From positions 1 to 35,061 of the forward strand of contig CACEHW010000008.1 in assembly GCA_902559415.1 (NCBI GenBank): 35,061 bases of DNA, in the 5' to 3' direction. The notes beneath the pieces are model-generated. The model was not told where the DNA came from and made no database searches. It worked only from the letters and a program-made list of their open reading frames with translations. Both the position numbers and the translations under genes were made by a program. This DNA comes from an uncultured Fidelibacterota bacterium (GTDB lineage: Bacteria; Fidelibacterota; Marinisomatia; Marinisomatales; UBA1611). Each line of letters opens with the position of its first letter. Position 1 is the stretch's first letter. Positions 1-28,773 of the stretch are shown in pieces.

Positions 1-1104
1 TTCTGAATTTGCAGCTATACTTATGCTAGTTTGAAAGTCACTCCCATCTGCGGCTTTCAACGAAGGTATCGATAAAACCATATCGCTTGTTACAGCCATG
101 TAATTATCAATATCAATAACCAGGCTCCCACTACTAATAGTAGCTAAAATAACTTTGTTAGAATCCGCGGATAAACTAATTGTCCCAGATTCAGATATGG
201 ATTGTGTTGGAATTTTTGCATTGGCTGAGATAACCTCGAGGCCACTCCCTGAGATTTCAACAGAAAAAGACGAATTCTTGGCAGCATTATCGATTAACAC
301 ATTATCTTCCCCAGGGCTACTCCCTGTAACCTCAACGATAATATTACCAGGAAGAGTAAGGTCAGATAGTTCTAATAGAGCCGATTGCTGTTCACCGCTA
401 TTTATAGGGCCTGCTATGGTTGTAGAACCCCCCACTATATCTGAGCCGTCAGAGTTCTTTAACTGAACATCAACATCTCCAAGAGGAATAACAAGATCAT
501 TTATAATTGTAAGAGACAAAGACCCAGAGCTAAAGACTGCCTCTGAAAAATCAGTAAAACTAAAATCATTTGTTACTGGCTCTAAAGCAAAAGAAGGTAT
601 GTTCACTGTATTACTATCTGGTATATCAGAAACACTAGGATAGATAGATGAAAATAAATACGGTTCTGTTGCTTGAGGATCAATGTTATCAAGAGAGATT
701 AACCCAACCTCAGAGCTTACTTTATTTTCAATAGGGTCAATCCCAACAGGATCAAACCCAATTTTTTCTTCTACCTCTGTATCTTCGATGGTAACGTTAT
801 CAACACTCTGCGAAAATTGTTTATTTATATCATCAATTGAAAGCTTATCTCCTACTTCTTGCTTGTCAATGTTAACCGTTTTATTGAACACAAAAATCGA
901 ATCGTTAGCTCCGTATGACTCCTTGGTAATACTCGAATCTCCAGTAAGTATATCAACGTCATTCAACGTGATAGATTCTTGATAAATAGAAAAGCCTAAT
1001 GATGGCTGAATTATTGGAAGCTTATCAAGGTCAGGCTCAATTGAACATGATGACAAGAAAGCACCAATAATTAATATTATATTATATCTTTTGAAATGAA
1101 ACAC
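1..1104 (-). CDS. Secreted lipoprotein, partial (C-terminus off the left edge)
   Basis: The minus frame is open from a TAA just upstream of 1104 down to base 1, giving 368 residues with no stop, so the gene continues beyond the window. The only plausible start before the signal peptide is GTG at 1104-1102; no clear Shine-Dalgarno sequence precedes it. The N-terminus reads as a lipoprotein signal: Lys-Arg at residues 5-6, a hydrophobic stretch, then a lipobox L17-S-S-C20. The residues after the Cys (S-I-E-P-D) are acidic, which in Bacteroidetes-type lipoproteins can direct export to the cell surface; that reading is inference. The rest is rich in Ser, Asp, Val and Ile with alternating beta-strand-like patterns (about residues 185-368), suggesting beta-sandwich domains. 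I do not recognise the family. It lies 88 bp downstream of the 3504-aa giant and may be the last part of the same operon, possibly an outer-membrane partner of the giants. Confidence 0.85.
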   Translation of the reverse strand, partial: MFHFKRYNIILIIGAFLSSCSIEPDLDKLPIIQPSLGFSIYQESITLNDVDILTGDSSITKESYGANDSIFVFNKTVNIDKQEVGDKLSIDDINKQFSQSVDNVTIEDTEVEEKIGFDPVGIDPIENKVSSEVGLISLDNIDPQATEPYLFSSIYPSVSDIPDSNTVNIPSFALEPVTNDFSFTDFSEAVFSSGSLSLTIINDLVIPLGDVDVQLKNSDGSDIVGGSTTIAGPINSGEQQSALLELSDLTLPGNIIVEVTGSSPGEDNVLIDNAAKNSSFSVEISGSGLEVISANAKIPTQSISESGTISLSADSNKVILATISSGSLVIDIDNYMAVTSDMVLSIPSLKAADGSDFQTSISIAANSE

Positions 1105-1192: not shown

Positions 1193-4100
1193 CTATTTTA
1201 ATAATATCATTTTCTTGGAGGCAAAAAAGCTTTCTGCTTCTATTGTATAGATATACATACCTGCTGATACTGGGTCACCCTGATCATTTGTAGCATTCCA
1301 CAATACATTTTTATAACCCGCATCCTGCGATCCACTTAATAATGTGCGCACCTTTGAACCTAACATGTCATAAATCACTATCTTTACAGAACTTGTTTTT
1401 GGAAGTGTATACATGATCTGCGTGCTAGGATTAAACGGATTTGGATAATTTTGCAACAGTGCAAACTCTAACGGTAATACTTCCCCTACAATACCTAGAG
1501 TAACCACAGCGGGTTCAGAAGCATCGCTCTCATTACCACTTAGATCAACCGCGGTTACCCAATATTGAAAATCTCCATCAATACCAACATTGTCAGAGTA
1601 AAAGTTATTTTCAGCAACAAAAACAAGAGCAGACTCTGCTAGAGATTGATTTTGCCTATACACATTATAATGACTTAGATCATCAGCTTCTGAAATATTC
1701 CACTCAAGGTCAACACTTTCACCTTGAAAGGTCGCGACAAGCTGCTGCGGTATAGCAGGAAAAATATTATCGACTGAATATCCAGTTAGTGGCTCGGAAT
1801 CAAAGAAAGTATTCTGATCTAGAGTGTGAGCGGTTACCATGAATGTACTTTCAAAAATACCATCCGCGGTTGAATCTCCTTGCGTTGCAACAATCATGTT
1901 ATAAAGATCAAAACCATGATAAGGAACTGTTGCGATTAAACTCCAATCGTCTTCCATTCTCCATATACTATACTGAGGAAATATCTCATACTCTCTAGGT
2001 TCGCCAGGTGTCCAAGCTAGTTCTAGTTGCCCACCTTGGTCATTTGGAACGTCTTCTAGAAAAACAATAGTAGGAGCTTCAGGACTATCTGGAGCTACAA
2101 AATAGATATCATAGTTAATGACATTATCCTCAATTGTGAATGCACCAGGGATAAAAACAGGGTCGTAGTCTGATCCTGGAACCCAGGCATACATGCTATA
2201 CTCACCATTAACTAAGGGGAGGGTATATGCTCCATTTTCATCTGGAGAGATATAAGCCTGATACGTTAGAACAGAGTTCCACACATTGATCCACACTGTT
2301 GAATTATCACCATAATTAAGATGTACTATGCCAGCGATACCACCATCAAATTCAGATACAGGTGTAAGTGTAAAATCAATGACCTGATCACTACCAGAAA
2401 GTTCAACACCATACTCAAAATTCATGAAGTAGCCATTACTTCCAGCACCAAAATCATAAAGTCCATTTGGTACTTGCAAACTATACTCGCCGTTTTCATT
2501 AGAGAATGTGCTATTTATAGCATAAGATTCTCCTGCTGGAATTACATATACCTCCATATCAAATAGACCGTTTCCACTAAGATCTGTAATTACTCCAGAT
2601 ACGGTATTGAGATACATCTCATCTAAGCTAAAATCTTGGGTAAATGACTGTCCAGAGGTGATAGATAACGTATCTAAATATTCTTCATGGTTATCTGCAG
2701 TTACTGACATATAATACTCTGACTCTGGTAAAAATAATTGATACGAGCCATCATCTAAAGTTTCAACTGAGAATAGCTGGGTGGTATTCACATTGTAAGC
2801 GGTAATGTCCGCTCCACCAACTCCATTTCCATCAATATTAGAATAAACCGTACCTGATAACATTCCAGGGTCAGGATCATTACCTTGTACAAGAGCAATA
2901 TCTAGATCATAAGATGAACCAGCTTCAAACTCTATACTGCCTACAGATTGAACGCTAGTCTCATACCCATCAGCAGATACAATTAATACGCCATCATCAC
3001 AATCATCAGGGTAATAGCTAAACACACGGTACGTTCCAATTTCACCAGTATGATCCCAGTCACTTGCCTGATCACAGTTCAACTGAACCTCTGCATATGG
3101 AATCAACTCATCAGTATCAAAATCTCTTATCGTTCCATAAAGTCTAGAAGCAGCTAACATCTCAGCAATGCCAACGCTTAGTACTTGATGCTCTCCAGAA
3201 CTAAGATAAAAAGCATCGTGCTCTACCCAGTATCCATCTGAGTAAACAAAAAGATCATAGTCCTCCTCACCGGGAACTTGGACCAAGAAATAACCATTCT
3301 CATCTGTAGTTGACTCAATGGTTACCATTTCCTCATCTGTGTAAGCAAGAAGGACTGAGGCATTTGCAAGGGGAACATTCGTGTACCAGTCCGTTACCGT
3401 ACCCTCTACCATTGCATCTTCAAGAACTCCTAAAGAAACATTTATATATGTATCCTCAAATGGCGCGACATAAATATATTGATTATGATCAATTAGTCCC
3501 TCATACGATATAGTTACAAAATAATTGAGTGAACCTAAAAGGTCCATATTGTATTCACCATTTACATCACTAAATGTCTCCGCGCTATAACTTTCATCTT
3601 CAGCTATAGCTATAATATGTGCGCCTTCTAATGGTGAATTATCTGATGCTGATTCAATTACTCCTACAAGTTTACCATTTAACATTTGTTCAGAATCTGG
3701 ACTGGCAGGCATACGAGTATAGGAAAAACCTCCTCCATTTCCACAACAAGTCCAGCTATGCAATACAACATCAAAATAAATATCTTCCTCGATGAGATGT
3801 AAAGACATAAACTGACCTAAAGCACCTCTAGGATTGTTACCTCCAATAGCAGCCTGCCACGGCTGATAGTCGTCTATTGTTAAATCATCTGTCTTTCCGA
3901 AAGACCACTCTGTATTTTCTGGTGACCCAAACGCATCATAGTAAACATAAGCAGAGCTGTAATAATCTTGCTCCTCAGCAATGTTAAAAAGAGGGTTTTG
4001 ATCTTGTCTAGTGATCCAAACATTATCAGTAATACGATCTTGATTTTCTTCTAATGTCCAATCAGCATAATCTTCCTTGGTAAATGTGATACTTTGCCCA

Positions 4101-7100
4101 TACTGATCAGTTCTAGTATACGAAAAACCTCCTCCATTTTGACAGCAGGTCCAGCTATGAAACTCAACGTCATAAAATAAATTTTCTGATACTATAAACA
4201 TAGAAAAAATGTGGCCACCATCATTCAGACTACTCAAGCTCATTTGATTCTGAACAGCCTCTTTAAATGGTCGGTATTCTCCCTCGACATAATCAGTAAG
4301 CCCATAAGCCCATAACGTATTTGAAGGAGCTGAATAAGCTTCATCAGAGCTTTCAAAATAATAGCTATTTTCAGAAAAAGGATTATAAATACCTTGTTGA
4401 TTACCACGAGTAATCCAAGTTCTATCAGTAATTCTATCTTGGTTTTGCTCTAGTAAAGGGTCAGCAAAATCCACCTTCTCAAAATAAACTGCATCTAATG
4501 GATATTCAAATGAATTTATCTCAGCTGGGGTTCTTGTATAAGAAAAGCCACCACCATTATTATTACTTGTCCAACTATGAAACTCCACATCGTAAAATAA
4601 ATCTTCCTGAATGATATACATCGACATAGTTCTGCCAGGAAGATTTTGATGATTACCACCAGTTGCATCTCTAAAACTTTGATACCCATTTGTGTTAGTT
4701 TGTAAAGCAGTTTGTCCTAGTGCCCAAATTGTACCACTTGGAGAAACTCCATGATCTGAATAAGACTCAAAAGCAGCATTATATAGCGGCTGATTATCAC
4801 CACGGGTTATCCAAACACTTGCAGTAATTCGATCTTGATTCTCCTCAAGAGAGGCATCTGCATAATCTTCTTTTGTAAATGTTACTGGCTCTTGAGAATA
4901 TTCACAGGTCCCATCATTAGTGTTAGCATATAGATCATAATTCTCAGCATAAGGATCAGTACAACCATCTACAGCTGGCGGAGGGCCTATCGGAGCAGCA
5001 TCTCCACTAAGCTCAGTACCATAAATAGTTCCATCGTGACCGTTGCCTGTAATATCATAAACTGTGCTATTTTGAACTTCGTTGAAATTCCAATAGCCTA
5101 CTAAACCTGACTCATAACCTAAAAGTTCAGATACCATATAAGACTGAATAGTTTGTTGATCTAGAGCGATATTATAAATAGATAATTCATCTAAAATACC
5201 TGGAAAATGTTCATTGCTGCCTACACTATGATTAACGTAACCAAACTTCAGTGGATATCCTGAGGTACCTTGAAAAGCAGTCTCGAAAGAGCTTTCACCT
5301 TCTAATTGCCCATCAACATATGCCCTAGCCGTATTGCCATCATAGGTAACTGCAATATGGTGCCAATTATTATCTCTTAAATCCGTTGTACCGCTAACAG
5401 AGCCACCGTCACGAACCTCTAACCATAGATTTCCATTACTAGAGCCACTGTTTGAACCAGCATATAAAATATATCCATAACCATTATAGCCTCCTACTAC
5501 AGAACCCCACCAACTATTATGATTGGAAGGTATCTTTACCCATCCAGATATTGTCATTTCATTATTTAGCGCCAGACTTTCATTATAATTAATATCAACA
5601 TAGTCATCTTGTCCATCAAAACTCAAAGCATTATTTACATAAGCAGCTTCACAGCCAATACCCTCAGCACCCAAATTTGAACCAAATTCACCAGCTGAAA
5701 TACTTGATGAATTTTGAGCTAAAGAAAAATCATTACCATTAGCATCACAGAACAAAGGTTCAGAATCAGTATTACCTTCTCCTTCAAATCCTCCTTCAAT
5801 ATTTGAGTATGAAACATCAAATGATCCCCCTTGAATCGTACATAAAGAGGCAACATCATTACCATAAATAATTGAATTTCTAATATTAACCTGTTCATAT
5901 ACAGCAACTATGCCACCTGCACACACGCTACTAGTGTTGTTTGCAATTGTACAATAATTAATATTAGAAGTGGATCCTGTGAATTTTATTCCTCCACCCT
6001 CAACATTTGCATGGTTATTTGATATAACTGAATTTTCAATATCTTGCATCCCATTAATAAATCTTAAACCACCGCCAGTATCTCCAGCAGAATTACCATA
6101 AAAATATGAATCGTTAATAACTGCATGACTTAATTCAGTATTTTCTGCCATAATTGCTCCACCATCAGTACTAGCAGAATTATTTTCAAATGTACAACCT
6201 AATACTTCAAAATAATCTAGACCACTTAAATAAATTGCTCCACCATGTCTAGCAGAACTATTACCAGAAAAAATTGAATTATTTATGTGCGCATTAAAAG
6301 GTATTTCGCTACTAGATGCTAAAATTATACCGCCGCCAGAACCTCCATCAGCAACATTATTCTCAATTATACAATTAGAAATTTCAAGATGGGATTCTGA
6401 ATCATCGCTTGTGATAAAAATACCTGCGCCTGATCCAGGATCACCATTTTCATTAGTAGCATTATTATTTTTAATGGTTGTCTGATCGATATTTAAAAAA
6501 GTGTTATTTGCATAAATACCAGCTCCATCACTTCCAGAACCTGCAGTTTGATTGGATTCAATTAAACTGTTTGCAATCATTAATTCTGAATTTGTTATGT
6601 TTATACCACCACCTTTATCTGAACGCCCAAAGCGAATTGTTACTCCTTCAATATGATATTGACCATTAGATAGGCTAAATACACTACCGTCATAATTCCC
6701 CTGAATGATTACATCTGAGTTTTCATGACCTATTCCATCATGGTTTCCTTGATTACTGGAGCTAGACCTCAAAATAAAATTTTTATTATTTGCAGTTAAT
6801 TTTTCATCGTAAACCCCAGGTTCTACAATTATTTCGGGACTATTAACCCCTGTTTTATCTATCGCTTTTTGAATTGTTTTAAAAGGACTATTTTGTGAAC
6901 CTACATTATCATCAGATCCTTGGGTAGAAACATACCATGGACCTTGATAAGGGATTTGATCTGACCAAACCGCGCCGCTTATTACCCCATGATTCCCATT
7001 CCCAGAATGATCATACAATAAATTTCCATCACCTTCAGAAAACTTCCACATGCCCATTAGTCCAACAGAATATGGATCAGGAGATTCAGACATTAAATAT

Positions 7101-10100
7101 TGAATCTCATATTGTTTGAGAGGCTTACTCCAAACACTCATAGAACTGATCTTACCACCTACATTACCAGAACCACCTAATACATCTGCCATATGCCAAA
7201 CAGAATTATCGTAATCATTTACCGAACCAGGATTTTGAAATACAACGACATTCGCATCAAGCTCACCATTAATGTATACCAACATACTATCCCCAGTAAA
7301 TACAGCACCAATATGCTGCCAACCTGGGACCAATGGAGTTTGAGTGAATCCTAAAGAACCATTTTGGTTATCACTACCATACATAATATTTGATTGTTCC
7401 CCAGTTAGAACTGTGAAACCAATCTTACTCTGATAGCTACCCAGAAAAATACTCTTGTTACCGTTTGTGCTATTAACTTTATTTATAAATGTCCTTTGAC
7501 CATTAAGAGGAATTATATTTTCATCTATGTAAACCCATGTCGCAATTGAAAACTCTTCATCCGAATCCATATCACTTCCTAGATCAACATGGTCTTGACT
7601 TGCCCCAAAACTAAGTGAGTGTTCTCCATTTTCAGGATATCCATAGCAAAATCTGCTATTGACATTTGCCAGCGGATCATAATTATCTGCATATGGATCC
7701 ATGCAACCTAATTTTGAAGATTCACCTGTCCATATAGCACCATTAATCGTGCCATTATTTCCATTACCACTAATATCAGGTAGTGTATTACCCTCACCTT
7801 CATTGAAGTCCCAATGAGCAAAGTAATCACTTTCGTTGTTTATCAATATTTTTACATCATCAATTAATCCATCAAAATATTCACCATATACTGTATTCCC
7901 TCTTCCAAATGATAGTGTGGGGACATTATTAGATTCTTGACCTAGACTTTGAAATGTAACATCATCAGTCTCTATAAGCTGATTATTTAGATACCATTGA
8001 ACCTGATTATTTTCTAATACTATTTTTACAGGATACCACTGGTCAGGTAGGATTACTTCAGAATCTAAATATGCAGTGGAAAAACCTGAATTATCATCTT
8101 TAAATCCAAATTCTAAATAATTCTGATCGGAGAGTCTAATACCAATCTGTGTATTACCAGAAGATTGAGAAGTGATCAAACCCTGATGCTGCCCATCATC
8201 ATGTCCTGCGCTCTGCCTAAAAGTAAACTCAAATTTTAATGATGTAGCGCCACTGAAAGCAGTGTAAGGAATTCCCGTATCAACATAATCATCTGCCCCA
8301 TCAAATCTTAGAGAGTTATTACCTCCTGGAACTGGTAGGATAGGAAGTTCAGGGACATCAGTCTCCCATGAAGCGCCGTTGATTGAACCGTGATTCCCAT
8401 TACCAGAGTGATCGTATAAAATATCCCCATCTCCAACATTAAATCTCCAGTCCGCAAGAAGATCTGCCTCTACACTTGCGACACTTGAATTCATATTCTC
8501 TTGGATCTGTTCTTGTGTTAGTGCGGTATTCCAGATACGTAACATGTCAATGTTCCCATTATACTGCTCCCCATTGCCATTATTATTACTACCAATTCTA
8601 AAACTATTTACACTAAATGAGGCTGTCTTTGTAGACTGACCATCCAAAACACCATCAACATATACCTTCAAATTATTTTGACCTGCATCTGCATCATAGG
8701 TGGCTGCTACATGATGCCAAATATTATCTGTTATATCAGTTGAGCCATAGGTATCATGGGCTATTGGATTACTACACTGAGAACCAAAAAGAAGTTTATT
8801 GTTGTGCTCTGTAAGAAATAAATTTCCACAACCACCCGATACTATATTCGAATATCCGCTGGTCCCATCCTTTTTCACCCATGCCATGATAGTTACTTTT
8901 GAGCTATAGTTTCCTATCTCACCTACACTTACATTATCATTTTCAAAAGATAGCGAATACTCACCATTATCAGGGTAACTAGAGCAGCTTCCATCATCTA
9001 AATTCGCCTCAGAATCATAATTTTCAGCGTAAGGATCAGTGCATCCTAAAATTGGCACATCTTCACTTCTAGAAGGTCCATTTAGCAATGCGTGGTTCCC
9101 TTTTCCTGAAAAATCAAAAGCTGTGCTACCACTACCCTCATTTAATTTCCAATTACCAACAATATCAATATCTGAATTCATAATTCCTGATGACATATAG
9201 TCTGATATCTCTTGCTCACTTAATGCTTCTTTAATTAATAAAATCTCATCAAGATTACCGAAAAATGGCTGAACATCATCTCCATCTATTCCAATACGTA
9301 GCTCAGAATTAGGATCAACATAATACTGGGTGATATCATCACCTTGAGTAATATTCCATGAATCGGCAGTTACATTTTGGCCATCAATATAAATTTGAAT
9401 TAATCCATTATTTTTAGTTATAACTAAGTTGAACCACTCATTTTCAATTATTTGATTTGGTAAAGAATTGTATTGATAACAAGTTCCATTTGAGCACAAG
9501 CTAAACCACACACTATTATCCCAATCTAAATAATTAATGTAATATCCATCAGAGTTATAGTATGTGTTATTTGAAAATAAATTTTGTGATAGATTTACAT
9601 TATTCATTTTCCCAGATATGACCCATGTATAATCACCTTGAATATTTAAATGATCACCATCAGGAATTGATAGATAATCATCTTGCCCATCGAACTCTAG
9701 AGCATAACTGCCATCTTCAGAATATCCTGAACAAGTACCATCATCAGAAGTTGCTTCGGAGTTATAATTTTCAGCATATTCATCTGTGCAACCATAAACA
9801 GGCTCAGCAGGGACATCAGACTCCCATTGATAATTCCCATAAAGATTAAAATGGTTGCCATTACCTGAATTATCAATTAATTGATTACCGGCACCTTGGC
9901 TAAAGTCAAGATTTACAATAGTATTCGCATCAGAACTAAGTGGAAATTGTGGAGAAAAATTTTCAGTATATTTTGCTCCATTAGTAATCGACATACCTGC
10001 ATAACTACAATCAAGCATATGGTCTCCAGCAAAAGGAGAGTGATTATTCATCCTAATATTATTGTTACTGGAAGTATGATCATAACCTTCACTTGGACTA

Positions 10101-11707
10101 GTACTTTGATCATTTAAAACACCATCTAAGTACAATCTAAAATTCCACGAGCCATCTGCATTTGGCTCATAAGTTGCTGCAAGATGATGCCAAGCACCAT
10201 CATCCATTCTTTCATTAGTTATAACTCCATGATCAGCGAAACCTTTCCCTGAATTCTCAGAATCTCCTGGATTAATTCCAAAATTAAAATTCCCATATGG
10301 ATCGCCGCCTCCACTTCTACGGTAACTTGAGACAATATTCGCACCATCATCATAACCTGAATTAGCACCTGTATTTACACCTTCATTCTTATACCAAGCC
10401 TCTACAGTGAATGGCTGAATACCACCAAAAATATTTGTTGATGATGTCAGTGATTCGGAATAACCACTCATAAAATCAAAATGGACAGAATAATTTTCAT
10501 CATTCTCATTTTGCTCTTCACCTGAAAAATATCTTATTGGTCTGATATGTTCTGAAAATGACTGCTTATTTGTTTCTCCAATATTTTGATATTGTACTTC
10601 GCTTGATCCGAAATTGATAAAAAGAGCACCTATTGAACTAAATTCTGTTGAAGACCAATAATAGTGATTTTCATAATCACCAATATTATTTGAAATTGAT
10701 AACTGATACATTAACCACAATTCATCGATTGAAGGTAAATGCCAATCGCTATATCCATTTATTTCAGTATTTAAAGATATGCTAGCAGCATTATCGCCAT
10801 CGCAACCGTTTGCTATATCAATTGAATTCTGCAGACCCGAACCTACAGCGTAACCATCTGCTCCATTAATTTCTGAACCTGAACATCCCCAAGTTGTAGT
10901 TGGATCCCCATCGCCATACCATCCATCTGGAGAGATTTCAATATATCTCCAACCATCAGATACTAAGCCTTTATCATAAATAACAAAACCTCCTGCGGGT
11001 CCTAAACTACCTACAAGATAATCAGAATCGTTTTCAAGCATGGGGGGCACATCATCACTCCAAGCAGCTCCATAAATTATTCCGTTATTACCATTACCAC
11101 TCAGGTCAGTTAGTGTTGAACCTTCACCCTCGTTAAAGTCCCAGTAGCCCAACAAACTAGCTACAGATGTATATTCACCAAAATTTGATAATGCTGAAAC
11201 ACCCGAACCTGAATTATATAAAGCATTTATCTCAGCATTAGTTAATGATTGATCCCACATGCCTAAGGCATCCAAATTTCCTTGAAGAAACATACGCTCA
11301 GGCCAACCCCAACCATGCGAACCCATAAACGTAATAGTTTCTGCAAAAGAATACTCTGCTTCTAAATATAAAAAAATCCAACTATCCTTAATTATACTTG
11401 ACTCATTATAATCTGTTATTTCATTCCCATTCATATAAATTTTACTCCAGCCAGATCCAATGGTCTTATAAGGTTCAAGCCAACTATTGCCTAGACCTGG
11501 TCTCGCATCAATAATATATGAATCACCATTATCAACAGTATTATCACTACTTACCTTAACCCAAAATGCCAAGGATCTAACATTAGTCATGGGTATGTCA
11601 AGCTGATCATCTACCCCGTCAAAGCTAAGAGAATAGTTATCTTGGGGAAACCCTATAGCTAGAGTTGCAAAAAATAATACTAATATTTTATTTACGTTGT
11701 TCTTCAT
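1193..11707 (-). CDS. Giant T9SS-secreted multidomain LamG/beta-helix surface protein (3504 aa)
   Basis: Likely a cell-surface or released adhesin-like protein; substrate unknown. Signal peptide about 1-21. Approximate order: LamG (concanavalin A-like) 22-225; DUF1566/Lcl_C-like domain 230-395 with GYSDWHLPSIDELW near 319; five LamG modules 405-1585; right-handed beta-helix 1588-2023 with many GGGI/GGAI turns; LamG 2024-2233; three NQDRITDN modules 2273-2665; carboxypeptidase-regulatory-like beta-sandwiches 2670-3205; Fn3-like region 3207-3410; T9SS type A sorting domain 3413-3504 with QNYPNPFNPSTQI. Four Cys-x18-Cys linkers of the GCTDPYAENY type separate modules. No catalytic motif was seen. 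The ATG at 11707 lies 20 nt after the stop of the 140-aa gene, so cotranscription is likely. Residues 2763-2953 are encoded by a block identical in the 5281-aa gene. The sorting domain and LamG calls are firm; individual boundaries are estimates. Confidence 0.93.
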   Translation of the reverse strand: MKNNVNKILVLFFATLAIGFPQDNYSLSFDGVDDQLDIPMTNVRSLAFWVKVSSDNTVDNGDSYIIDARPGLGNSWLEPYKTIGSGWSKIYMNGNEITDYNESSIIKDSWIFLYLEAEYSFAETITFMGSHGWGWPERMFLQGNLDALGMWDQSLTNAEINALYNSGSGVSALSNFGEYTSVASLLGYWDFNEGEGSTLTDLSGNGNNGIIYGAAWSDDVPPMLENDSDYLVGSLGPAGGFVIYDKGLVSDGWRYIEISPDGWYGDGDPTTTWGCSGSEINGADGYAVGSGLQNSIDIANGCDGDNAASISLNTEINGYSDWHLPSIDELWLMYQLSISNNIGDYENHYYWSSTEFSSIGALFINFGSSEVQYQNIGETNKQSFSEHIRPIRYFSGEEQNENDENYSVHFDFMSGYSESLTSSTNIFGGIQPFTVEAWYKNEGVNTGANSGYDDGANIVSSYRRSGGGDPYGNFNFGINPGDSENSGKGFADHGVITNERMDDGAWHHLAATYEPNADGSWNFRLYLDGVLNDQSTSPSEGYDHTSSNNNIRMNNHSPFAGDHMLDCSYAGMSITNGAKYTENFSPQFPLSSDANTIVNLDFSQGAGNQLIDNSGNGNHFNLYGNYQWESDVPAEPVYGCTDEYAENYNSEATSDDGTCSGYSEDGSYALEFDGQDDYLSIPDGDHLNIQGDYTWVISGKMNNVNLSQNLFSNNTYYNSDGYYINYLDWDNSVWFSLCSNGTCYQYNSLPNQIIENEWFNLVITKNNGLIQIYIDGQNVTADSWNITQGDDITQYYVDPNSELRIGIDGDDVQPFFGNLDEILLIKEALSEQEISDYMSSGIMNSDIDIVGNWKLNEGSGSTAFDFSGKGNHALLNGPSRSEDVPILGCTDPYAENYDSEANLDDGSCSSYPDNGEYSLSFENDNVSVGEIGNYSSKVTIMAWVKKDGTSGYSNIVSGGCGNLFLTEHNNKLLFGSQCSNPIAHDTYGSTDITDNIWHHVAATYDADAGQNNLKVYVDGVLDGQSTKTASFSVNSFRIGSNNNGNGEQYNGNIDMLRIWNTALTQEQIQENMNSSVASVEADLLADWRFNVGDGDILYDHSGNGNHGSINGASWETDVPELPILPVPGGNNSLRFDGADDYVDTGIPYTAFSGATSLKFEFTFRQSAGHDDGQHQGLITSQSSGNTQIGIRLSDQNYLEFGFKDDNSGFSTAYLDSEVILPDQWYPVKIVLENNQVQWYLNNQLIETDDVTFQSLGQESNNVPTLSFGRGNTVYGEYFDGLIDDVKILINNESDYFAHWDFNEGEGNTLPDISGNGNNGTINGAIWTGESSKLGCMDPYADNYDPLANVNSRFCYGYPENGEHSLSFGASQDHVDLGSDMDSDEEFSIATWVYIDENIIPLNGQRTFINKVNSTNGNKSIFLGSYQSKIGFTVLTGEQSNIMYGSDNQNGSLGFTQTPLVPGWQHIGAVFTGDSMLVYINGELDANVVVFQNPGSVNDYDNSVWHMADVLGGSGNVGGKISSMSVWSKPLKQYEIQYLMSESPDPYSVGLMGMWKFSEGDGNLLYDHSGNGNHGVISGAVWSDQIPYQGPWYVSTQGSDDNVGSQNSPFKTIQKAIDKTGVNSPEIIVEPGVYDEKLTANNKNFILRSSSSNQGNHDGIGHENSDVIIQGNYDGSVFSLSNGQYHIEGVTIRFGRSDKGGGINITNSELMIANSLIESNQTAGSGSDGAGIYANNTFLNIDQTTIKNNNATNENGDPGSGAGIFITSDDSESHLEISNCIIENNVADGGSGGGIILASSSEIPFNAHINNSIFSGNSSARHGGAIYLSGLDYFEVLGCTFENNSASTDGGAIMAENTELSHAVINDSYFYGNSAGDTGGGLRFINGMQDIENSVISNNHANVEGGGIKFTGSTSNINYCTIANNTSSVCAGGIVAVYEQVNIRNSIIYGNDVASLCTIQGGSFDVSYSNIEGGFEGEGNTDSEPLFCDANGNDFSLAQNSSSISAGEFGSNLGAEGIGCEAAYVNNALSFDGQDDYVDINYNESLALNNEMTISGWVKIPSNHNSWWGSVVGGYNGYGYILYAGSNSGSSNGNLWLEVRDGGSVSGTTDLRDNNWHHIAVTYDGNTARAYVDGQLEGESSFETAFQGTSGYPLKFGYVNHSVGSNEHFPGILDELSIYNIALDQQTIQSYMVSELLGYESGLVGYWNFNEVQNSTVYDITGNGHDGTIYGTELSGDAAPIGPPPAVDGCTDPYAENYDLYANTNDGTCEYSQEPVTFTKEDYADASLEENQDRITASVWITRGDNQPLYNAAFESYSDHGVSPSGTIWALGQTALQTNTNGYQSFRDATGGNHQNLPGRTMSMYIIQEDLFYDVEFHSWTSNNNGGGFSYTRTPAEINSFEYPLDAVYFEKVDFADPLLEQNQDRITDRTWITRGNQQGIYNPFSENSYYFESSDEAYSAPSNTLWAYGLTDYVEGEYRPFKEAVQNQMSLSSLNDGGHIFSMFIVSENLFYDVEFHSWTCCQNGGGFSYTRTDQYGQSITFTKEDYADWTLEENQDRITDNVWITRQDQNPLFNIAEEQDYYSSAYVYYDAFGSPENTEWSFGKTDDLTIDDYQPWQAAIGGNNPRGALGQFMSLHLIEEDIYFDVVLHSWTCCGNGGGFSYTRMPASPDSEQMLNGKLVGVIESASDNSPLEGAHIIAIAEDESYSAETFSDVNGEYNMDLLGSLNYFVTISYEGLIDHNQYIYVAPFEDTYINVSLGVLEDAMVEGTVTDWYTNVPLANASVLLAYTDEEMVTIESTTDENGYFLVQVPGEEDYDLFVYSDGYWVEHDAFYLSSGEHQVLSVGIAEMLAASRLYGTIRDFDTDELIPYAEVQLNCDQASDWDHTGEIGTYRVFSYYPDDCDDGVLIVSADGYETSVQSVGSIEFEAGSSYDLDIALVQGNDPDPGMLSGTVYSNIDGNGVGGADITAYNVNTTQLFSVETLDDGSYQLFLPESEYYMSVTADNHEEYLDTLSITSGQSFTQDFSLDEMYLNTVSGVITDLSGNGLFDMEVYVIPAGESYAINSTFSNENGEYSLQVPNGLYDFGAGSNGYFMNFEYGVELSGSDQVIDFTLTPVSEFDGGIAGIVHLNYGDNSTVWINVWNSVLTYQAYISPDENGAYTLPLVNGEYSMYAWVPGSDYDPVFIPGAFTIEDNVINYDIYFVAPDSPEAPTIVFLEDVPNDQGGQLELAWTPGEPREYEIFPQYSIWRMEDDWSLIATVPYHGFDLYNMIVATQGDSTADGIFESTFMVTAHTLDQNTFFDSEPLTGYSVDNIFPAIPQQLVATFQGESVDLEWNISEADDLSHYNVYRQNQSLAESALVFVAENNFYSDNVGIDGDFQYWVTAVDLSGNESDASEPAVVTLGIVGEVLPLEFALLQNYPNPFNPSTQIMYTLPKTSSVKIVIYDMLGSKVRTLLSGSQDAGYKNVLWNATNDQGDPVSAGMYIYTIEAESFFASKKMILLK
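2850..3421 (-). repeat. 572-bp block identical to 13839-14410 (copy in the 3504-aa gene)
   Basis: Reading line by line, I found no mismatch between 2850-3421 and 13839-14410 (offset 10989 bp, same orientation). Homology extends to about 2824 with three mismatches, then stops; at the other edge it stops abruptly at 3422. It encodes residues 2763-2953, starting E-D-A-M-V-E-G-T-V-T-D-W, which covers about two carboxypeptidase-regulatory-like modules. The offset is divisible by three. Confidence 0.93.
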
Positions 11708-11727
11708 GCTTTTAAAGTCTTAACAGA

Positions 11728-12138
11728 TTAATTTGAATCGTTTCCTTTTTTATAATTAATAGTTCTATTCAACTCTCTGGAACTGGTAACCTTATTATTG
11801 GAATTTATTCTTTCAACAGAAGTGTTCTGATTATCATCTTTAATCTGATCTATGATTTTTTTAATAGCCAGTAACTTGCTATTCTCATTATTCACCTTAA
11901 ATGTTTTAGGCTCATATTTAACACCCTTAAGAATTTGTTTTTTCATAAAAGCTTTTTCTTTATTTACTTTAATCATACGAACCTCCTGAATCATTTCTGG
12001 GTCTATAACTAAATCTTGACTGCCATTCGTTCTTTCATCTAATAAAGTTCCAGAGTCGCTTCCTGATCCTGGAATTTCTTTTTGACCCATAATGAGTGAA
12101 GATAATAATGAGATTAATACTATTGATATTTTTTTCAT
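11728..12138 (-). CDS. Small secreted protein of unknown function between two giants (136 aa)
   Basis: I do not recognise a family. The start is placed at ATG 12138 rather than ATG 12150: a GGAG lies 6 nt upstream of 12138, and from there the protein opens as a textbook signal peptide (MKKISIVLISLLSSLIMG, cleaved near G18/Q19). The mature part, about 118 residues, is rich in Lys, Asn, Asp and Ser, begins QKEIPGSGSDSGTLLDERT, has no Cys, and looks partly disordered with a helical central stretch (about residues 45-95). Starting at 12150 would put only 4 nt after the stop of the 5281-aa gene; the real gap is 16 nt. The next giant begins 20 nt after its stop. The context suggests an accessory factor made together with the giants, for example a periplasmic helper or processed peptide, but nothing in the sequence proves this. 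Confidence 0.75.
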   Translation of the reverse strand: MKKISIVLISLLSSLIMGQKEIPGSGSDSGTLLDERTNGSQDLVIDPEMIQEVRMIKVNKEKAFMKKQILKGVKYEPKTFKVNNENSKLLAIKKIIDQIKDDNQNTSVERINSNNKVTSSRELNRTINYKKGNDSN

Positions 12139-12144
12139 ATTCAA

Positions 12145-12148
12145 CTCC
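12145..12148 (-). promoter_or_regulatory. Shine-Dalgarno GGAG that decides the start at 12138
   Basis: On the minus strand the sequence reads ATGGAGTTGAATATG. The GGAG is correctly spaced (6 nt) for the second ATG and lies inside the first four codons if the first ATG were used. It sits only 7 nt after the stop codon of the upstream giant gene, which would suit translational coupling. Confidence 0.6.
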
Positions 12149-12154
12149 ATAGAA

Positions 12155-15100
12155 TTACTTTAATAAAATCATTTTCTTAGCTTGATAAAATGTGCCCGCT
12201 TGGATTGTATATATATACATCCCCGCAGAGACAGATGAACCATTATCATTTGTGGCATTCCATAATACATTTCTAAATCCAGCATCCTGTGTTTCATTTA
12301 CAAGAGTGCGAACTTTACTGCCCAACATATTATATATCGTAATGATCACTTTAGAATTTTCTGCTAGTGCGTACCTTATTTGCGTAGAAGGATTAAATGG
12401 ATTCGGATAATTTTGATTTAATGCAAATTCCTCAGGAATTATTTCTTGCTCTACAGATAATTCAACGCCAGCTACCTCAGACGGATCACTTTCGTTGCCA
12501 TTGTGATCTACCGCTGTGATCCAGTATTCAAAATTACCCCACTCAGAAACTACATCTACAAAAGATGACTCAATTGTCTGAAAAATAAATGCTGGCTCCT
12601 CACTATTAACATCAGCCCTGTAAACATTATGATATGCAAAATCTTCATCAACAGGAGCAGACCATGATAGATCAACCTGATACATTTCGCTATCAATAGC
12701 TTCGTTTGAAACAGCCAAATCTGTAGGAATCTCAGGAGATAAGTTATCCAATGAATACCCTGAATAAGGAGGTGAATCAAAAAACACATAAGGGTCATCA
12801 GTATGCGCGGTTACCATAAATGTACTGTAATGGACAGTATCTTGATTTGCATCTACCAGAGTCGGAACTACTTTATAATATAACTCTGAACCTTCACTAA
12901 AATTTTCTGTTGCAATGTAATGCCATAATTCTGGTGCACCAGTTGGCAAGTTTGAGATCTTTCTCCAAATAGAGTATTGCGTAAATGCTACTTGATCCTC
13001 AGCGTTTCCAGATAACCATGCCATATCAAGTTTTCTACCTTGGTCGTTTGGAACATCAGTTAAGGATGAAATTATTGGAGGCTCTACAAATCCTGGCTGA
13101 CTAAAATGAATATCATAAGTGGTGATATCATCCTCAATTGAGAAAGCATCAGGAATTGCGATACTCGCATAACCATTGGAAGTTGCAAATATTGAATACG
13201 TACCATTAAGTAGATTAATATAAAATGTGCCATTATCAGCTGTAACAGTTTCAGCAAAATAATTATCGTTAAATACGCTTATAGTAGCAGACCCAGATAA
13301 ATTACCAAAAAAGTAAACAGAGCCCATTACAGCCCCATCAAAAGACTCAATTGCATTTAGTGTGAAATTAACTTCTGAATCTCCACCTTCAATTGAAACA
13401 TCATTAACCCAAGACATTTGGTAGCCTGTTATAGATACTGATAAATTAAAATTACCATCAGGTACTGTAAGCTGATACGATCCATTATTGTCTGATAAAG
13501 TAGAGATTTCTGAATCACCTTCATCTGATATAAAATGAGCAGCAACAATTGCCCCTTCGATAGGAGTTTCTTCCTCATTCATTACTATTCCATAAAATGT
13601 ATTTGAATATTCTTCATCAAGATAAATTGTAGTATCTATAACTACTCCTGAATAAATGTAAACCTCTATAAATTTTTCTTGATGCCCCTCTGCATTTACT
13701 GATATAGTATATTGCGATTCCGGTAAAGACATAGAAAATGAACCACTCTCTGTTTGCGCATTATATACCTGGCCAGTATTAATACTAAAAGCATCAAAAG
13801 TTGCTTCAATCACATTTCCATCAATATTAGAGTATACTGTACCTGATAACATTCCAGGGTCAGGATCATTACCTTGTACAAGAGCAATATCTAGATCATA
13901 AGATGAACCAGCTTCAAACTCTATACTGCCTACAGATTGAACGCTAGTCTCATACCCATCAGCAGATACAATTAATACGCCATCATCACAATCATCAGGG
14001 TAATAGCTAAACACACGGTACGTTCCAATTTCACCAGTATGATCCCAGTCACTTGCCTGATCACAGTTCAACTGAACCTCTGCATATGGAATCAACTCAT
14101 CAGTATCAAAATCTCTTATCGTTCCATAAAGTCTAGAAGCAGCTAACATCTCAGCAATGCCAACGCTTAGTACTTGATGCTCTCCAGAACTAAGATAAAA
14201 AGCATCGTGCTCTACCCAGTATCCATCTGAGTAAACAAAAAGATCATAGTCCTCCTCACCGGGAACTTGGACCAAGAAATAACCATTCTCATCTGTAGTT
14301 GACTCAATGGTTACCATTTCCTCATCTGTGTAAGCAAGAAGGACTGAGGCATTTGCAAGGGGAACATTCGTGTACCAGTCCGTTACCGTACCCTCTACCA
14401 TTGCATCTTCGATAGAGTCATCAAGGTCTAGATAAATGTCTTGTGATAGGTCAACGTCTGCCATTGAAAGATACTGGATATTTTCCTGATAGTTGGACAT
14501 AGTAGTGCTTACATAGTAATTTAGATTACTAACAATATCTGCACTAAAATAACCGCTTTCATCACTAGTAACCTCCGTATTATAAATGTTATTTTCCTCA
14601 ACAATGATAACAGAAGCTCCAGCTAATGGAGAATCATCTTCTGAGCTTTTCACATATCCAGAAAGAATAATATCTGGAGTTAAAATAGGTGCCCCTAATG
14701 AGTTTTCATAAGCTCCGATATCAGGATTTGACCCGTTTGGCGCAGGTCTTGGGTTATTATTTAAATCATAATCAATAACTGCTGCAGGACCGATATTAAA
14801 AGATGTAGAGTACTTCACTCCACCTCTACGCAATATTTTATTCTGATCTGAGACTAATTCCCAATTGGTATTTTGAAAATCATTATCATTCACATTCTCA
14901 AACCATAGGACATACGTACCATTCTCTAAATTATTAACCTCATAATTAATCTCAGACTGCCAATCTTCTCCTCCAAATTCAGCGATAATATTATACGTGC
15001 TGTCTTCACCTATTTTTACAATTACATCTTGAGCAAAGCCATTATTCTCTTTATCTAATAACCTAAGTCTTACATTATTTGAAAGTCCACTGTTTAGATC

Positions 15101-18100
15101 TTCACCAAACCCTATACCTAAGGATTGGTCGGATAAATAATAGGTCATCTCAGAGAATAGAGGGTCACTATCTAAAATAGACTGACCTTCATACCCACCT
15201 CCAACAATTGAATTTGAGATTGTAATAGAATTATCGTTATCTACCATATCAACCGTTTGATCCCATAAAATAGAATTCGTCATGTAAATCGGAGCATCCC
15301 AACCGTTCGTTAGTCCAGCATTATCATTCTCAGAAGAATTGTTTGTTATTGTAGCATTGGAAATCGTAACAGTAGAGAAGTCCCATGATGAAACACCACC
15401 GCCTGAAATTGTTGCAAAATTATCAGTGATTAATGCATTTGTTACATTTACATGACAAAAATTATATGCCGTTAGACCAGGTCCATACGCACAAGTATTG
15501 TTACGAGAGATTAAATTTGAAACATCAATATTTGATCCATTATAGAAATAGATACCTGCCCCTAGCCACTGAGACATATTGTTCTGAACAAGAATATCTT
15601 TTGCAATACCATGACCAGCATTTATGTAGAAAATACCACCTCCATCTTCAGATTGATTATATTCTGAAGTGATGTTTTCTAGATGTGAGCCTGGCGCATG
15701 AATACTAATCCCACCGCCCCAACGAGCCTGATTATTTTTTACAATTAAATTTTTAGCTGTATAGTCAGAGCAAAGCACAAGCATCCCGCCACCATCATTA
15801 TTTGGCCAGTTTTCTGAATCTAATGGCTCAAAACCATTTTGAATTGTAAATCCATTTATCTCTCCACCATGAGATTCGTGATCTATGAATACTGGCTTCC
15901 CAGAACCACCAGCATCAATAATAGTTTGTTCTATGAATGAGGTATCTCCATTAGCAGCCAAAGAGTGCAGGAAAACATATTTGTTAATGTATATATTTTC
16001 GAAATAAGTCCCTGGTTGCACGAGGATGGTATCACCAGGAATAGCAAAATCAACTGCTTCTTGGATAGTTGAAAACTCTTCAGGAACATTAACTAATCCA
16101 GGGATAGGTGCTGGAGCTTCAATGGGAGCTCCACTTAACCAAGTAGCACCATTAATTATACCATCATTGCCATTATTTGTTATGTCTATTAAGGAATTTT
16201 CAGAACCTTCGTTAAAATTATATAGAGCTACTAATCCATCTTCAATACCACTTAAAGCTCTATTAGAAATTTCATATATTTCTTCCTCACTTAAGGCTTT
16301 ATTCCAAAAACCTAATTCATCTAATTGCCCATGAAAAAACTCATCAGCATTCTCGTGGTTAACTATTCCAATTTTTATATCACCATTGCCATCATAGGCT
16401 GTTAGATCTGTAGAAAACTCATCAGACATAACATCTAAATTGCCATCAATATAAACCTTGTAACGAGAACCATCATATACAACACTAATAAAATGCCACT
16501 GGTCATCTCTCAAATCAAAATTACCTGAAACCTCACTAGGATTCTCGCAACATATATTTAATCTAATTGCTCCATTATCAAAGTTCCCTCCAGCCCACAG
16601 AGTAAATCCAAACCCAGATCTTCCACCAATGATAGTAGAGTATTCGTTTCCTATATGATTTGATGGTATTTTGACCCAAGCAGTAAAAGTGATTTCATTA
16701 TTCGCAAATTCGAGATTATCACTTGATGATAAAACCACATAATCACTGTTGCCATTAAAGCTAAGAGAATAATTACTATATGGTTCATTACAACCAGGGT
16801 CTTGCGAGAAGCCTACATACGAGTTATCTTGTCCATTAAATAAACTTGAAGAGATACTCGATAGTTCATAGTTTCCTATTGCAGGATTACAGAACTCTGG
16901 ATTTTCATCAAAGTTACCTTCCCCATTATATCCACCTTCAACATTCGAGTAAGTAACATTATTCAATTCAGGCGAAGCAAAAACAGATTGCCCTGAATTA
17001 CCCCACAAGATACAATTTATTAGATTCGGATTAGAATTATAACTAGCTATTCCACCATATGATTGTGCACTATTATCAGCAATGGTAACATTTGAAAGTA
17101 CCACATTTGCATTTATATAAAAATTACATGCACCACCATAATATGCTGTATTTCTAGCGATCAATACATTCATTAGTTCGGGATTACTATTTTCTTCAAC
17201 AGCAATACCTCCACCATATCCATCTATGTCACTAGCTGCGTTTTCAATGATCGACACATTAGATATAACCGGACTTGAATTATCAGAAATATTTATTCCA
17301 CCACCACCCCACTCAGCTGTATTTGATTTAATAATTACATTAGTCACATTAGGACTTGAATTTATGTCGCAGTTTATTCCACCACCACCACCACCTATAT
17401 CATTAAGCGTGGCTTCATTATTTTCAATTAAAGAGGAAATTATAACTGGGCTTGAATTATTTTTACAAGATATACCACCGCCACCGCCTGCAGAATTATT
17501 TCTAATAATACAGTTTTCTATTGTTGGGCTAGACTCAAAGCATGCTACACCGCCACCAAAATCTGAATTACCATTTACAATGGAAAAACCTGATATAAAT
17601 GTGTTTAAGCTTTCACCACTATTAAAAGTAACAACACTCCCGTTTTGGCTACCATCGATGATTGTAGACTCTGGGCCATCAGTAGATATTACTCTGACAA
17701 TTTTACCATTGAAATTTAAATTCTCAAAATATGTTCCAGGAGCTACAAAAACTGAGTCGTTTTCATTGGCTATATTAATAGCATACTGAATTGAAGCAAA
17801 TGGGTAATCTTGAGAACCATTATTACTATCAGAACCGCTATCTGACACATACCACTCAGGTCCAGAATACGGTGGCATTGGAACATCATTGCTCCATGCA
17901 GCACCATAAATAATACCATGATTCCCATTCCCACTAAAATCAATTAATGATGTTCCTTCACCATCATTGAAATCCCAAAAAGACACCAAATCTTCATAGT
18001 GATTTGATCTACCATAAAACAGCTCTTCTATTTCATTATATGATAAAGCTCTACTCCAAATTCCAATGTTATCTAAATTGCCACTCCAGTATTGCCCACC

Positions 18101-21100
18101 AGAAAAACTCCCACCTCTACCAATAACTAAATCAGTTAATGTAGATTCTTGAGAAAGATTTGAAATATTTAAATCTTCAGTCTCTACATGTTCTCCATTG
18201 AAGTACCATTTAATATTATTGGTATTTATTGTAACAGCAACATGAGTCCATTGATTTAGAGATAGCGGGAAAGCATCTAATTGATAATGGGTTAAATTCC
18301 CACCTTCAGGAACAATCGCAATATTAAGATGATTATGTAAAGCATCAGATTCAGTGCCAACGACACCAAATGATAAACTAGTTGGGTAGTTTGATAAAAT
18401 ATATCTACCAAAATTTTCACTGTTATCATCAAGATAAATCCAAGATGAAACAGTTATTTCATTATTTTCAATTATTTGATCATTTTGAATTTCAGTTTGA
18501 ACAAAATCATCAACTCCATCAAAACTTAGCGACATGTTCGGCACATCACAGCTCTCACAACTATTAAAACAAAAAGGGCCTACAAACTGATTATTAGAGT
18601 TCGAAGTAGTAAAAGATCGATCAAAATATTCTCCATATCCACAATCACTAGAAATACCTTCCCATAGCCCTTGCCAATTACCATCTGTTAAACCAATTCT
18701 AAACTTGTACCAGTAGAAAGTATCTCTTTCAAGATCAACCGTTACCTCATAGATCATATCACCATCAGCATCAGTCATTTGGAATCCTGTCTGATCATCG
18801 TCTGAGTCTGCTAATCCACCTACATTACCTCCAGCGAGATATATGCCCTCTGATAGATCTCCTTCATAAACGTCTCCATTACTGAATTCCATCCCCTCAT
18901 AATACCTCATATCAACTTTGAATGTGACAGATGCAGAAGGTGTAACAAGACCATCATCCCAAACCGCACCATTGATATCTCCATGATTTGCATTCCCTGA
19001 ATGATCATATAGTATTTCACCATCCCCAGTATTGAATTTAAAATGAGCTACTGCATCACTAAATAATGTATCTTCATACATTATCCCTTTAATACCATCC
19101 TCATTTAACGCAACCGGCCAAATGCTCAGCTCATCAATAAAACCATCAAAATATTCATCATTGACTCCATTAAGATTAATAGTTGCTCCAATTGCAAATG
19201 GGTACTGGTTTGAGAAATTAGGACTCTCATTAATTTGAGCTTCTCCTATGATATCTCCATTTCGATATAACTTTAAATTATTATTTTCAACTGTAGCAGA
19301 TATGAATACCCACTGATTTTCATAATCTTCTGGATTGATATCTACATCTAATTCATAATAAGGTGACCCATCTACACCAAAAGAAAGAATACTCCCAAAA
19401 TCTTGAAACGATAGTAATATTCTTCCAAAATCTTGCTCTTGCCTGATTATCTCATAGTAGCGAGCTGAGGTGATATCATTTGGGAAGACCCAGGCGTTAA
19501 TTGTCATAGAACTTGATAGCTGATTAACCATATCACCTGATATACTTACATAGTCATCTTGTCCATCAAAAAATAAAGAATGATTTTGATTGTTTGGATA
19601 TCCCTCACAGCTACCATCATTCACGTTGGCATCAGGGTTATAATTTTGTGCAAAACTATCTGTACAACCATATAAAGGTGGCTCTAATGGGGCACTATCC
19701 CCTGACCATGATGCTCCCTCATTAATTCCATTGTTACCATTAGAACTTAAATCAGCAAGAGTTTGTCCTTGACCTTCATTAAAATTCCAATAACCAACTA
19801 AACCTTCTTCCAAACCAGAAAACTCAGAACTTAATTGATCTAAAATTTCAACGTCTGTCAATGGCCTATCCCAAATAGAGACATTATCTATTTTACCAGG
19901 GAAATATGAATTACCATTTGCTGATCCTATAGTTATATCAGCATTTTGGACAAAGGATATATCGTTAAAGTTAACATCCCCCTCACTATCTAATTCACCA
20001 TCAACATATATTTTAACTAAGCCACTCTCAAAAGTAGTTACAACATTAGTCCACTTATTTAATTCAATAGGAGTGTTACCTTTGACTTCTGAGAATGATG
20101 ACCCACCGCCAAAATTCACTGTATAATTATCAGCAGAAGGACTCCAAGTAAATAACCAACGATCGACTCCACCACCTGAACCTTCAGTTCTATTAAATAT
20201 TCTTGTATGAGCTCCATCACTGTATCTGTCTGGCTTGATCCAAGCTGATAAAGTCAAGCCACTATTTATTTGATCAATGGTTGCACTGGATGGAATTCTT
20301 ACATAATCACTAGCACCATTAAAGCTAAGAGAATTGTTCTCACCTGGTGTCGCTGGGAGATTCCAGATTGATCCATTAATATCTCCGTGACTTTGCCCGC
20401 CAGAGCGATCATATACTCTATCACCGCTTCCAGAGTTAAAGCTATATGAAGCAACAATCCCATCAAAGTTTAGCAGGCTATCAACTCCGAACGTAAAATA
20501 TTCTATTTCTGACTCAGATAAATACCTGTTCCAAATTACTACATTATCAATATGTCCATGAAAAAACTCATCTCCCCTGCTCATGGTATTTGACCCAATT
20601 CTCAAGGGGGAAGAAGTATCAATTGAAACAGTATATTCATTAGTTTCATCGACAATAAATCCATTAATATATAATTTCATAATACCATTTAGGTATGTTA
20701 GCGATAGGTCGGTCCATGTATTTTCAGATATTACATGATTTGTTATCCAGTCATTCCCTTCTAATGGAACGATAATAGTATTGTCGTTATTAATATAAAC
20801 TGATAACCTTTTCCCATTTACAGTTCCATCTCCTGCAGAGAAAAGATTTACTCCTTCAAAGTCTTGCGGATTATTATATTTTTTAAAAGATAGATTTATT
20901 GTGAAATTATTAGTCAAATCACCAGAGTTTGTAAAAATCGAATTATTATCTATTTCAACAAAATCATCAACTCCATCAAAAACTAGATTATAGTCTCCAT
21001 TATCAGGATATCCATTACAAGACCCATCATCAATGCTTGCATCTGGATCATAATTAAAAGCATATTGATCTGTACATCCGTATGCCTCAACTCTGGTATA

Positions 21101-28275: not shown

Positions 28276-28773
28276 CTATTTATCTTGTTTAAGCTTTTTT
28301 AGATGGTCAATTCCGTGCTGGTCAAGGTATAGATTTGTGAACTTATCCAGAAGCTCATAAGCATCACTACAATTACGCTGATCAACTGTCTGCTTGCATT
28401 TCATCATCTTTACAATAAGCTGTTGAAGAGTCAGAGTCTGATCGACATACTTTTGTCTGTCTTTATCACCTTTTTCTTTTGCCTTAACACGCTGAGCTAA
28501 AAAGTAGTTTAGAATTGTCTCCTGTACGTTTTGAGCGTGAGCTTCTTTGGTAGTAACCCACCTAGATATTTGATTTAAAGACTGAGCATCAGATTTCCCA
28601 GCAAGTTCGTTGATCTTGTTCATTGCCTTGCGGATTGTTGTTATATCTTCTTCAATTTGAACGATTCGTGCAGCATCACCATAAATACCACATGGTACCT
28701 GGCAATGCCCGTATACCTTTGTCGATAAAACAAAAAGAATCGATATAAAAAATATTTTTAAAACTTTAATCAT
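28276..28773 (-). CDS. sodN: Nickel superoxide dismutase with N-terminal export signal
   Basis: It converts superoxide to hydrogen peroxide and oxygen at a nickel centre. The hook motif HCQVPCGIY starts at residue 23. In known enzymes the nickel ligands are the free amino group and side chain of His1, Cys2 (thiolate and backbone amide) and Cys6; all are present (H23, C24, C28), with Pro27, Gly29 and Tyr31 also conserved. Residues 1-22 form a Sec-type signal peptide (Lys3/Lys6, core FFISILFVL, cleavage V-Y-G/H), so signal peptidase would expose the required His. The mature part, about 143 residues, is predicted helical and longer than the roughly 117 residues of the Streptomyces enzyme. It has an unusual extra Cys pair, C126 and C135. 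ATG 28773 has AAGGA with proper spacing (AAAAGGAATATCT before ATG). Terminators on both sides make it monocistronic. No SodX-type maturation protease or nickel transporter is in the window. Confidence 0.93.
   Translation of the reverse strand: MIKVLKIFFISILFVLSTKVYGHCQVPCGIYGDAARIVQIEEDITTIRKAMNKINELAGKSDAQSLNQISRWVTTKEAHAQNVQETILNYFLAQRVKAKEKGDKDRQKYVDQTLTLQQLIVKMMKCKQTVDQRNCSDAYELLDKFTNLYLDQHGIDHLKKLKQDK

What the first reader, a model, noticed from the sequence alone, without database searches (positions are those of the whole stretch)
2850..14410. 572-bp identical block shared by two giant genes in matching phase
2850-3421 and 13839-14410 are identical but their flanks are diverged, a typical gene-conversion island. 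The 10989-bp offset is divisible by three and both genes use the same absolute frame, so crossover between the blocks would delete the 136-aa gene and yield an intact 5272-residue chimera with the N-terminus of one giant and the sorting domain of the other. The arrangement allows modular exchange without frame damage.
Basis: partly seen in the sequence, partly recalled or inferred. Interest (0 to 1): 0.7.

Follow-up and report, generated by a model that had tools for sequence, protein, structure and literature searches.

The report
Copied cassette between neighbouring giant genes
In an uncultured, probably marine bacterium, two neighbouring giant genes for secreted proteins share a perfectly identical 572-letter stretch that was almost certainly copied from one gene into the other, a known kind of gene conversion seen here in an unstudied lineage.

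Summary
The genes are A (1193-11707, minus strand, 3504 aa) and B (12155-28000, minus strand, 5281 aa). Outside the block their homologous C-terminal regions are only 50-60% identical in DNA, with saturated silent sites; inside there are 0 changes over about 124 silent sites. A same-genus genome (G002) gives the direction. Its A orthologue matches A evenly (71-83% protein identity) through block and flanks, whereas B jumps from 26% to 78% and back to 37%. So A's block is native and B's was copied from A. The block holds two CarboxypepD_reg-like domains and replaces the equivalent segment of B. Three silent differences in adjacent codons just past the edge, then 19 identical bases, suggest an older 598-bp transfer re-homogenised later, or an assembly-collapsed interior. 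The in-frame 5272-residue chimera is arithmetically correct, but nothing shows that it occurs, and divisibility of the offset by three is irrelevant. B also carries a second perfect repeat (972 bp, in frame). The B-D-A island is absent from one congener. This is interlocus gene conversion, as known for H. pylori homA/homB and babA/babB: ordinary in kind. Reads are needed to exclude assembly collapse.

The parts
2850..3421 (-). 572-bp block, copy in gene A (residues 2763-2952), inferred native/donor copy; two CarboxypepD_reg-like domains
   Evidence: identity; polarity; domains
13839..14410 (-). 572-bp block, copy in gene B (residues 4531-4720 counted from ATG 28000), inferred recipient copy
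   Evidence: identity; polarity
2824..2849 (-). tail of the transferred tract in A: 3 silent differences from B in adjacent codons (ACG GTT TAT vs ACA GTA TAC), then 19 identical bases
13813..13838 (-). the same tail in B
1193..11707 (-). gene A, 3504 aa: LamG repeats, CarboxypepD_reg repeats, T9SS type A sorting domain at the C-terminus
12155..28000 (-). gene B, 5281 aa (5305 from TTG 28072): LamG repeats, about 130-aa repeat modules, CarboxypepD_reg repeats, T9SS-type C-terminal sorting domain
11728..12150 (-). gene D, 140 aa, small exported-looking protein between B and A (gaps of 4 and 20 nt); relatives in G002 and G005
21290..22261 (-). 972-bp perfect repeat inside gene B, second copy in gene order
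23453..24424 (-). 972-bp perfect repeat inside gene B, first copy in gene order
28276..28773 (-). nickel superoxide dismutase gene flanking the B-D-A island
1..1104 (-). gene F (runs off the window), other flank of the B-D-A island; adjacent to the Ni-SOD gene in G004

Best explanation
A segment of gene A, two CarboxypepD_reg-like beta-sandwich domains of the secreted protein's C-terminal region, was copied without reciprocity into the homologous place of its paralogous neighbour B by RecA-type ectopic recombination (interlocus gene conversion). The original transfer probably covered about 598 bp. The inner 572 bp is identical now either because a later conversion re-homogenised it or because the event is recent and the three edge differences arose separately. 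Shown: exact identity, saturated divergence outside, A-to-B polarity of the sequence, co-linear replacement in the same reading phase. Inferred: the recombination mechanism, the two-step history, and any effect on protein function.
For: 0 of about 124 synonymous sites differ inside the block, against pS 0.63-0.73 (saturated) outside it, in co-linear homologous C-terminal regions. The G002 A orthologue matches A at 72% / 78% / 71-83% protein identity (upstream / block / downstream) but B at 26% / 78% / 37-56%. Downstream flanks group A with G002 (alternatives rejected, AU p <= 4e-6), whereas A and B are identical in the block. G005's syntenic B-slot gene has a native counterpart of the same two-domain segment at the same place (50-54% identical), so the block replaces rather than inserts. 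Edge pattern: all 3 silent differences of a 598-bp tract lie within its last 26 bp (p about 6e-5 if silent differences were spread evenly). Published parallels: C-terminal segments of H. pylori homA/homB and babA/babB evolve in concert by intragenomic conversion (PMC2795765); measured bacterial conversion has a mean walk of about 500 nt in either direction (PMC5485169).
Against: The genes are now only 50-60% identical next to the block, and their longest shared run elsewhere is 24 bp; that is poor substrate for RecA, so the first transfer may have been illegitimate or may date from when B was more similar. The direction rests on one orthologue of A; the probable B orthologue in G002 is withheld (reads N). 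Assembly collapse of the interior cannot be excluded without reads. With only three edge differences the two-step history is weak, because one multi-base mutation could make them.
Confidence: 0.72

Rival explanations
1. Long-standing concerted evolution: an old duplicated segment shared by A and B throughout the genus is kept identical by frequent conversion, rather than by one recent copy event.
For: Edge differences are confined to the last 26 bp of a 598-bp tract, where conversion is expected to be least efficient; B keeps the G002-like codons ACA GTA there while A has ACG GTT. The arrangement is older than the species: D follows the B-slot gene in G005, and in G002 a D relative follows a withheld stretch.
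Against: Not separable from a recent event with the sequences held; the G005 copy is diverged and its A is off the contig.
Confidence: 0.35
2. Assembly artefact: two similar but not identical copies were collapsed to one consensus by a short-read metagenome assembler, or the paths through the repeat were paired wrongly.
For: The genome is a 65%-complete draft in 83 contigs; differences survive only close to the edge, as bubble removal would leave them; there are two perfect repeats in one contig; the homologous contigs of G001, G002 and G005 break at or next to this locus.
Against: Wrong pairing is unlikely for A: upstream-block-downstream of A is contiguous and evenly similar in G002, which leaves the other pairing to B. 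Collapse would still need copies that are nearly identical, so a transfer is required anyway.
Confidence: 0.2
3. The segment in B came from an A-like gene of another cell (homologous uptake or phage-borne DNA) rather than from the neighbouring gene.
For: Identity to a donor of the same species would look the same.
Against: No relative in viral contigs; no third copy in the genome; perfect identity to the neighbour needs no outside donor.
Confidence: 0.1
4. Selection for an identical protein segment, without recombination.
For: The segment is about as well conserved as the better parts of its flanks between A and G002.
Against: 0 of about 124 silent sites differ although A and G002 are near saturation at silent sites in the same segment (pS 0.65).
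Confidence: 0.01

Closest known systems
Helicobacter pylori homA/homB and babA/babB segment 3 (PMC2795765, citing Pride and Blaser 2002)
   Same: Paralogous surface-protein genes whose 3' (C-terminal) segment is homogenised by intragenomic gene conversion while the N-terminal part diverges.
   Different: There homA and homB are about 90% identical overall and many strains document the process; here the flanks are below 60% identical, the tract is one sharp block, and one draft genome is held. A and B are T9SS-type secreted proteins, not outer-membrane adhesins of known ligand.
Salmonella tufA/tufB gene conversion (PMC5485169)
   Same: Non-reciprocal transfer between paralogues in one chromosome; tract lengths of the same order (mean walk of about 500 nt in either direction).
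   Different: tuf genes differ at 12 positions in 1185 nt; here conversion would have crossed strongly diverged DNA unless the segment was already similar.
Cell-wall island variation in Haloquadratum walsbyi (PMC4535781)
   Same: Genomic island of surface-protein genes that differs between relatives through recombination.
   Different: Archaeal; whole-island and about 250-bp exchanges between lineages rather than one identical block between neighbouring genes.

Membership tests
Interlocus gene conversion between paralogues | Silent-site divergence abruptly near zero inside a tract and high outside, in homologous co-linear genes | tested here: met
   0 of 124 inside; pS 0.63-0.73 outside
Interlocus gene conversion between paralogues | Tract phylogeny differs from flank phylogeny (paralogue joins paralogue) | tested here: met
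   downstream flank groups A with G002 (AU p <= 4e-6 for alternatives); block: A and B identical at every base. On protein alone the block tree is only favoured, AU 0.90 vs 0.10
Interlocus gene conversion between paralogues | Non-reciprocal: donor unchanged, recipient replaced | tested here: met
   A native by comparison with G002; B-slot gene of G005 has its own counterpart segment
Interlocus gene conversion between paralogues | Dependence on RecA-type recombination | not testable with these tools
   needs experiment
Concerted evolution (homA/homB type) | In several strains each pair is more alike within the strain than between strains | tested here: inconclusive
   only one genome has both genes readable; the probable B of G002 is withheld
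Silent-cassette antigenic variation (pilE/pilS type) | Reservoir of silent partial copies elsewhere in the genome | tested here: not met
   only two copies, both in intact genes (genome 65% complete)
T9SS cargo protein | C-terminal type A sorting domain above the curated cut-off | tested here: met
   TIGR04183 32.9 bits for A (cut-off 23); PF18962 29.6 for B (cut-off 27); for A PF18962 is 24.8, below its cut-off

The most novel reading that the evidence does not exclude
The island of giant T9SS genes is an actively recombining surface-protein array in which identical in-phase blocks (572 bp between genes, 972 bp within B) recurrently produce chimeric or shortened giants in the living population, a variation system not described in this lineage.
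Probability: 0.1. Interest if true: 0.55.

Novelty: new member of a known kind. Interest (0 to 1): 0.3.

Why it matters
It gives a polarised, base-precise example of gene conversion between neighbouring giant secreted-protein genes in an uncultured, probably marine lineage, and shows how such genes exchange multi-domain segments while keeping frame. If reads confirm identity, the locus could be used to measure conversion in natural populations; if they do not, it is a warning about repeat collapse in draft genomes.

Tried and rejected
Chance or selection for identity: rejected by silent sites. Third copy or silent cassettes in the own genome: none. Phage-borne donor: no relative in viral contigs. 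Donor B to A: rejected, because A's block fits its orthologue as well as A's flanks do. Breakpoints exactly at domain borders: the left one is in a linker, the right one in the first strand of the next domain; a placement count gave about 7% by chance, so nothing is made of it. Predicted structure: mean pLDDT 63.5 and domain 3 unresolved, so no fold search was run. Naming the lineage: of the named relatives, TMED217 is unclassified in the taxonomy, MED-G177 is not listed, and TMED217 occurs in no held paper. A first impression that G002 has only one copy of the block was dropped when the stretch upstream of its D gene proved to be masked.

Full report
Observation. The two stretches are identical over exactly 572 bp and are maximal. 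Both genes lie on the minus strand: A = 1193-11707 (3504 aa), B = 12155-28000 (5281 aa from ATG 28000; 5305 from TTG 28072), with the 140-aa gene D (11728-12150) between them, 4 nt after B and 20 nt before A. The block is residues 2763-2952 of A and 4531-4720 of B and starts on a codon boundary in both. Outside it the longest run shared by A and B is 24 bp, and no exact direct repeat above 124 bp occurs in 720 kb of sampled stretches of this genome and three congeners.

What the genes are. Both have LamG repeats, several CarboxypepD_reg-like domains and a C-terminal sorting domain of type IX secretion. They are therefore probably secreted or surface-attached modular proteins (inference from the domains); the ligand is unknown. 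A weak Pfam hit of B to a clostridial neurotoxin binding domain overlaps a LamG repeat and is taken as a shared jelly-roll fold, nothing more. The block contains the second and third CarboxypepD_reg-like domains of the C-terminal region (A residues 2767-2844 and 2856-2939). The left edge lies in a linker, the right edge in the first strand of the next domain (low-confidence model).

Direction. The downstream 550 residues of A and B are co-linear homologues at 34-54% protein identity with saturated silent sites. The A orthologue in same-genus genome G002 (contig CAJQGZ010000089.1) matches A evenly: 72% upstream, 78% block, 71-83% downstream. Against B it gives 26%, 78%, 37-56%. Likelihood on the downstream flank rejects any grouping other than A with G002. 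Hence the A copy is native and the B copy came from A or an A-like gene. The B-slot gene of G005 (TMED217), in the same order C - Ni-SOD - B - D, has its own 50-54% similar segment at the same place, so the block replaced a counterpart.

History. Directly after the block come three silent differences in adjacent codons (A: ACG GTT TAT; B: ACA GTA TAC) and then 19 identical bases on the same diagonal, after which similarity ends. A tract of about 598 bp is therefore likely. That all three silent differences lie at its very edge (p about 6e-5 under even spread) suggests an older transfer with later homogenisation of the interior; collapse of the interior by the assembler would look the same, and one multi-base mutation could also do it. 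Zero differences in 572 bp bound divergence at about 0.5% (rule of three, own calculation).

Frame argument. But frame is kept because both copies are read in the same phase, which homology guarantees; that the offset is a multiple of three is a one-in-three coincidence across intergenic DNA. No such junction is seen in the own genome or in the readable sequence of the six congeners.

Surroundings. B holds a second perfect repeat of 972 bp (324 codons), which starts at a module start and stops in mid-module at SPSGT, so that the two modules there share a front half and differ in the back half. In G004 the Ni-SOD gene and gene F are direct neighbours, with about 124 bp between them whose two ends align to the two flanks of the island here; B-D-A is thus a present/absent island in the genus. 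In G005 the N-terminal two thirds of the B-slot protein is of another architecture. Together these make the locus recombinationally lively, but each is seen in one draft genome.

Comparison. H. pylori homA/homB and babA/babB show the same pattern, a 3' segment evolving in concert by intragenomic conversion. Salmonella tuf conversion gives tract lengths of this order. The case is a new member of a known kind. Limits: draft genome, no reads, one A orthologue, and the probable B orthologue of G002 withheld.

Noticed in passing
21290-22261 and 23453-24424: 972-bp perfect in-frame repeat inside gene B covering about 2.5 copies of a roughly 130-aa module (FTKEDxADPxLxxNQDRITDxVWITR...GGGFSYTR); it ends in mid-module, so the modules share a front half and differ in the back half.
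   Followed up: partly
4508-4888 (one copy); further copies in A, B and C: The roughly 130-aa repeat module has no match in Pfam or NCBIfam although it recurs in all three giant genes and in congeners.
   Followed up: partly
1105-28275: The whole B-D-A stretch (about 27 kb) is absent in same-genus genome G004, where Ni-SOD and gene F are adjacent with a clean empty site (L057 about 4139-4263).
   Followed up: partly
28276-28773: Nickel superoxide dismutase gene sits between giant secreted-protein genes and follows gene C in four congeners; it scores below NCBI's sodN cut-off (46 vs 90 bits) but well above Pfam's.
   Followed up: partly
32912-33250 and 33602-33940: Gene C has an internal repeat at 690-bp offset, mostly 72-98% identical per 50 bp, with a 55-bp exact core: an older duplication of the same sort.
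   Followed up: no
L052 3746-11797: The syntenic B-slot protein of G005 (2683 aa) shares only its C-terminal part with B; part of its N-terminus resembles the N-terminus of gene C instead.
   Followed up: partly
L070 1104-1227 and 2583-2706 (G000:C12): A 124-bp exact repeat with an offset divisible by three (1479) on a stretch that holds another giant ORF (2628 aa) of the same genome.
   Followed up: no
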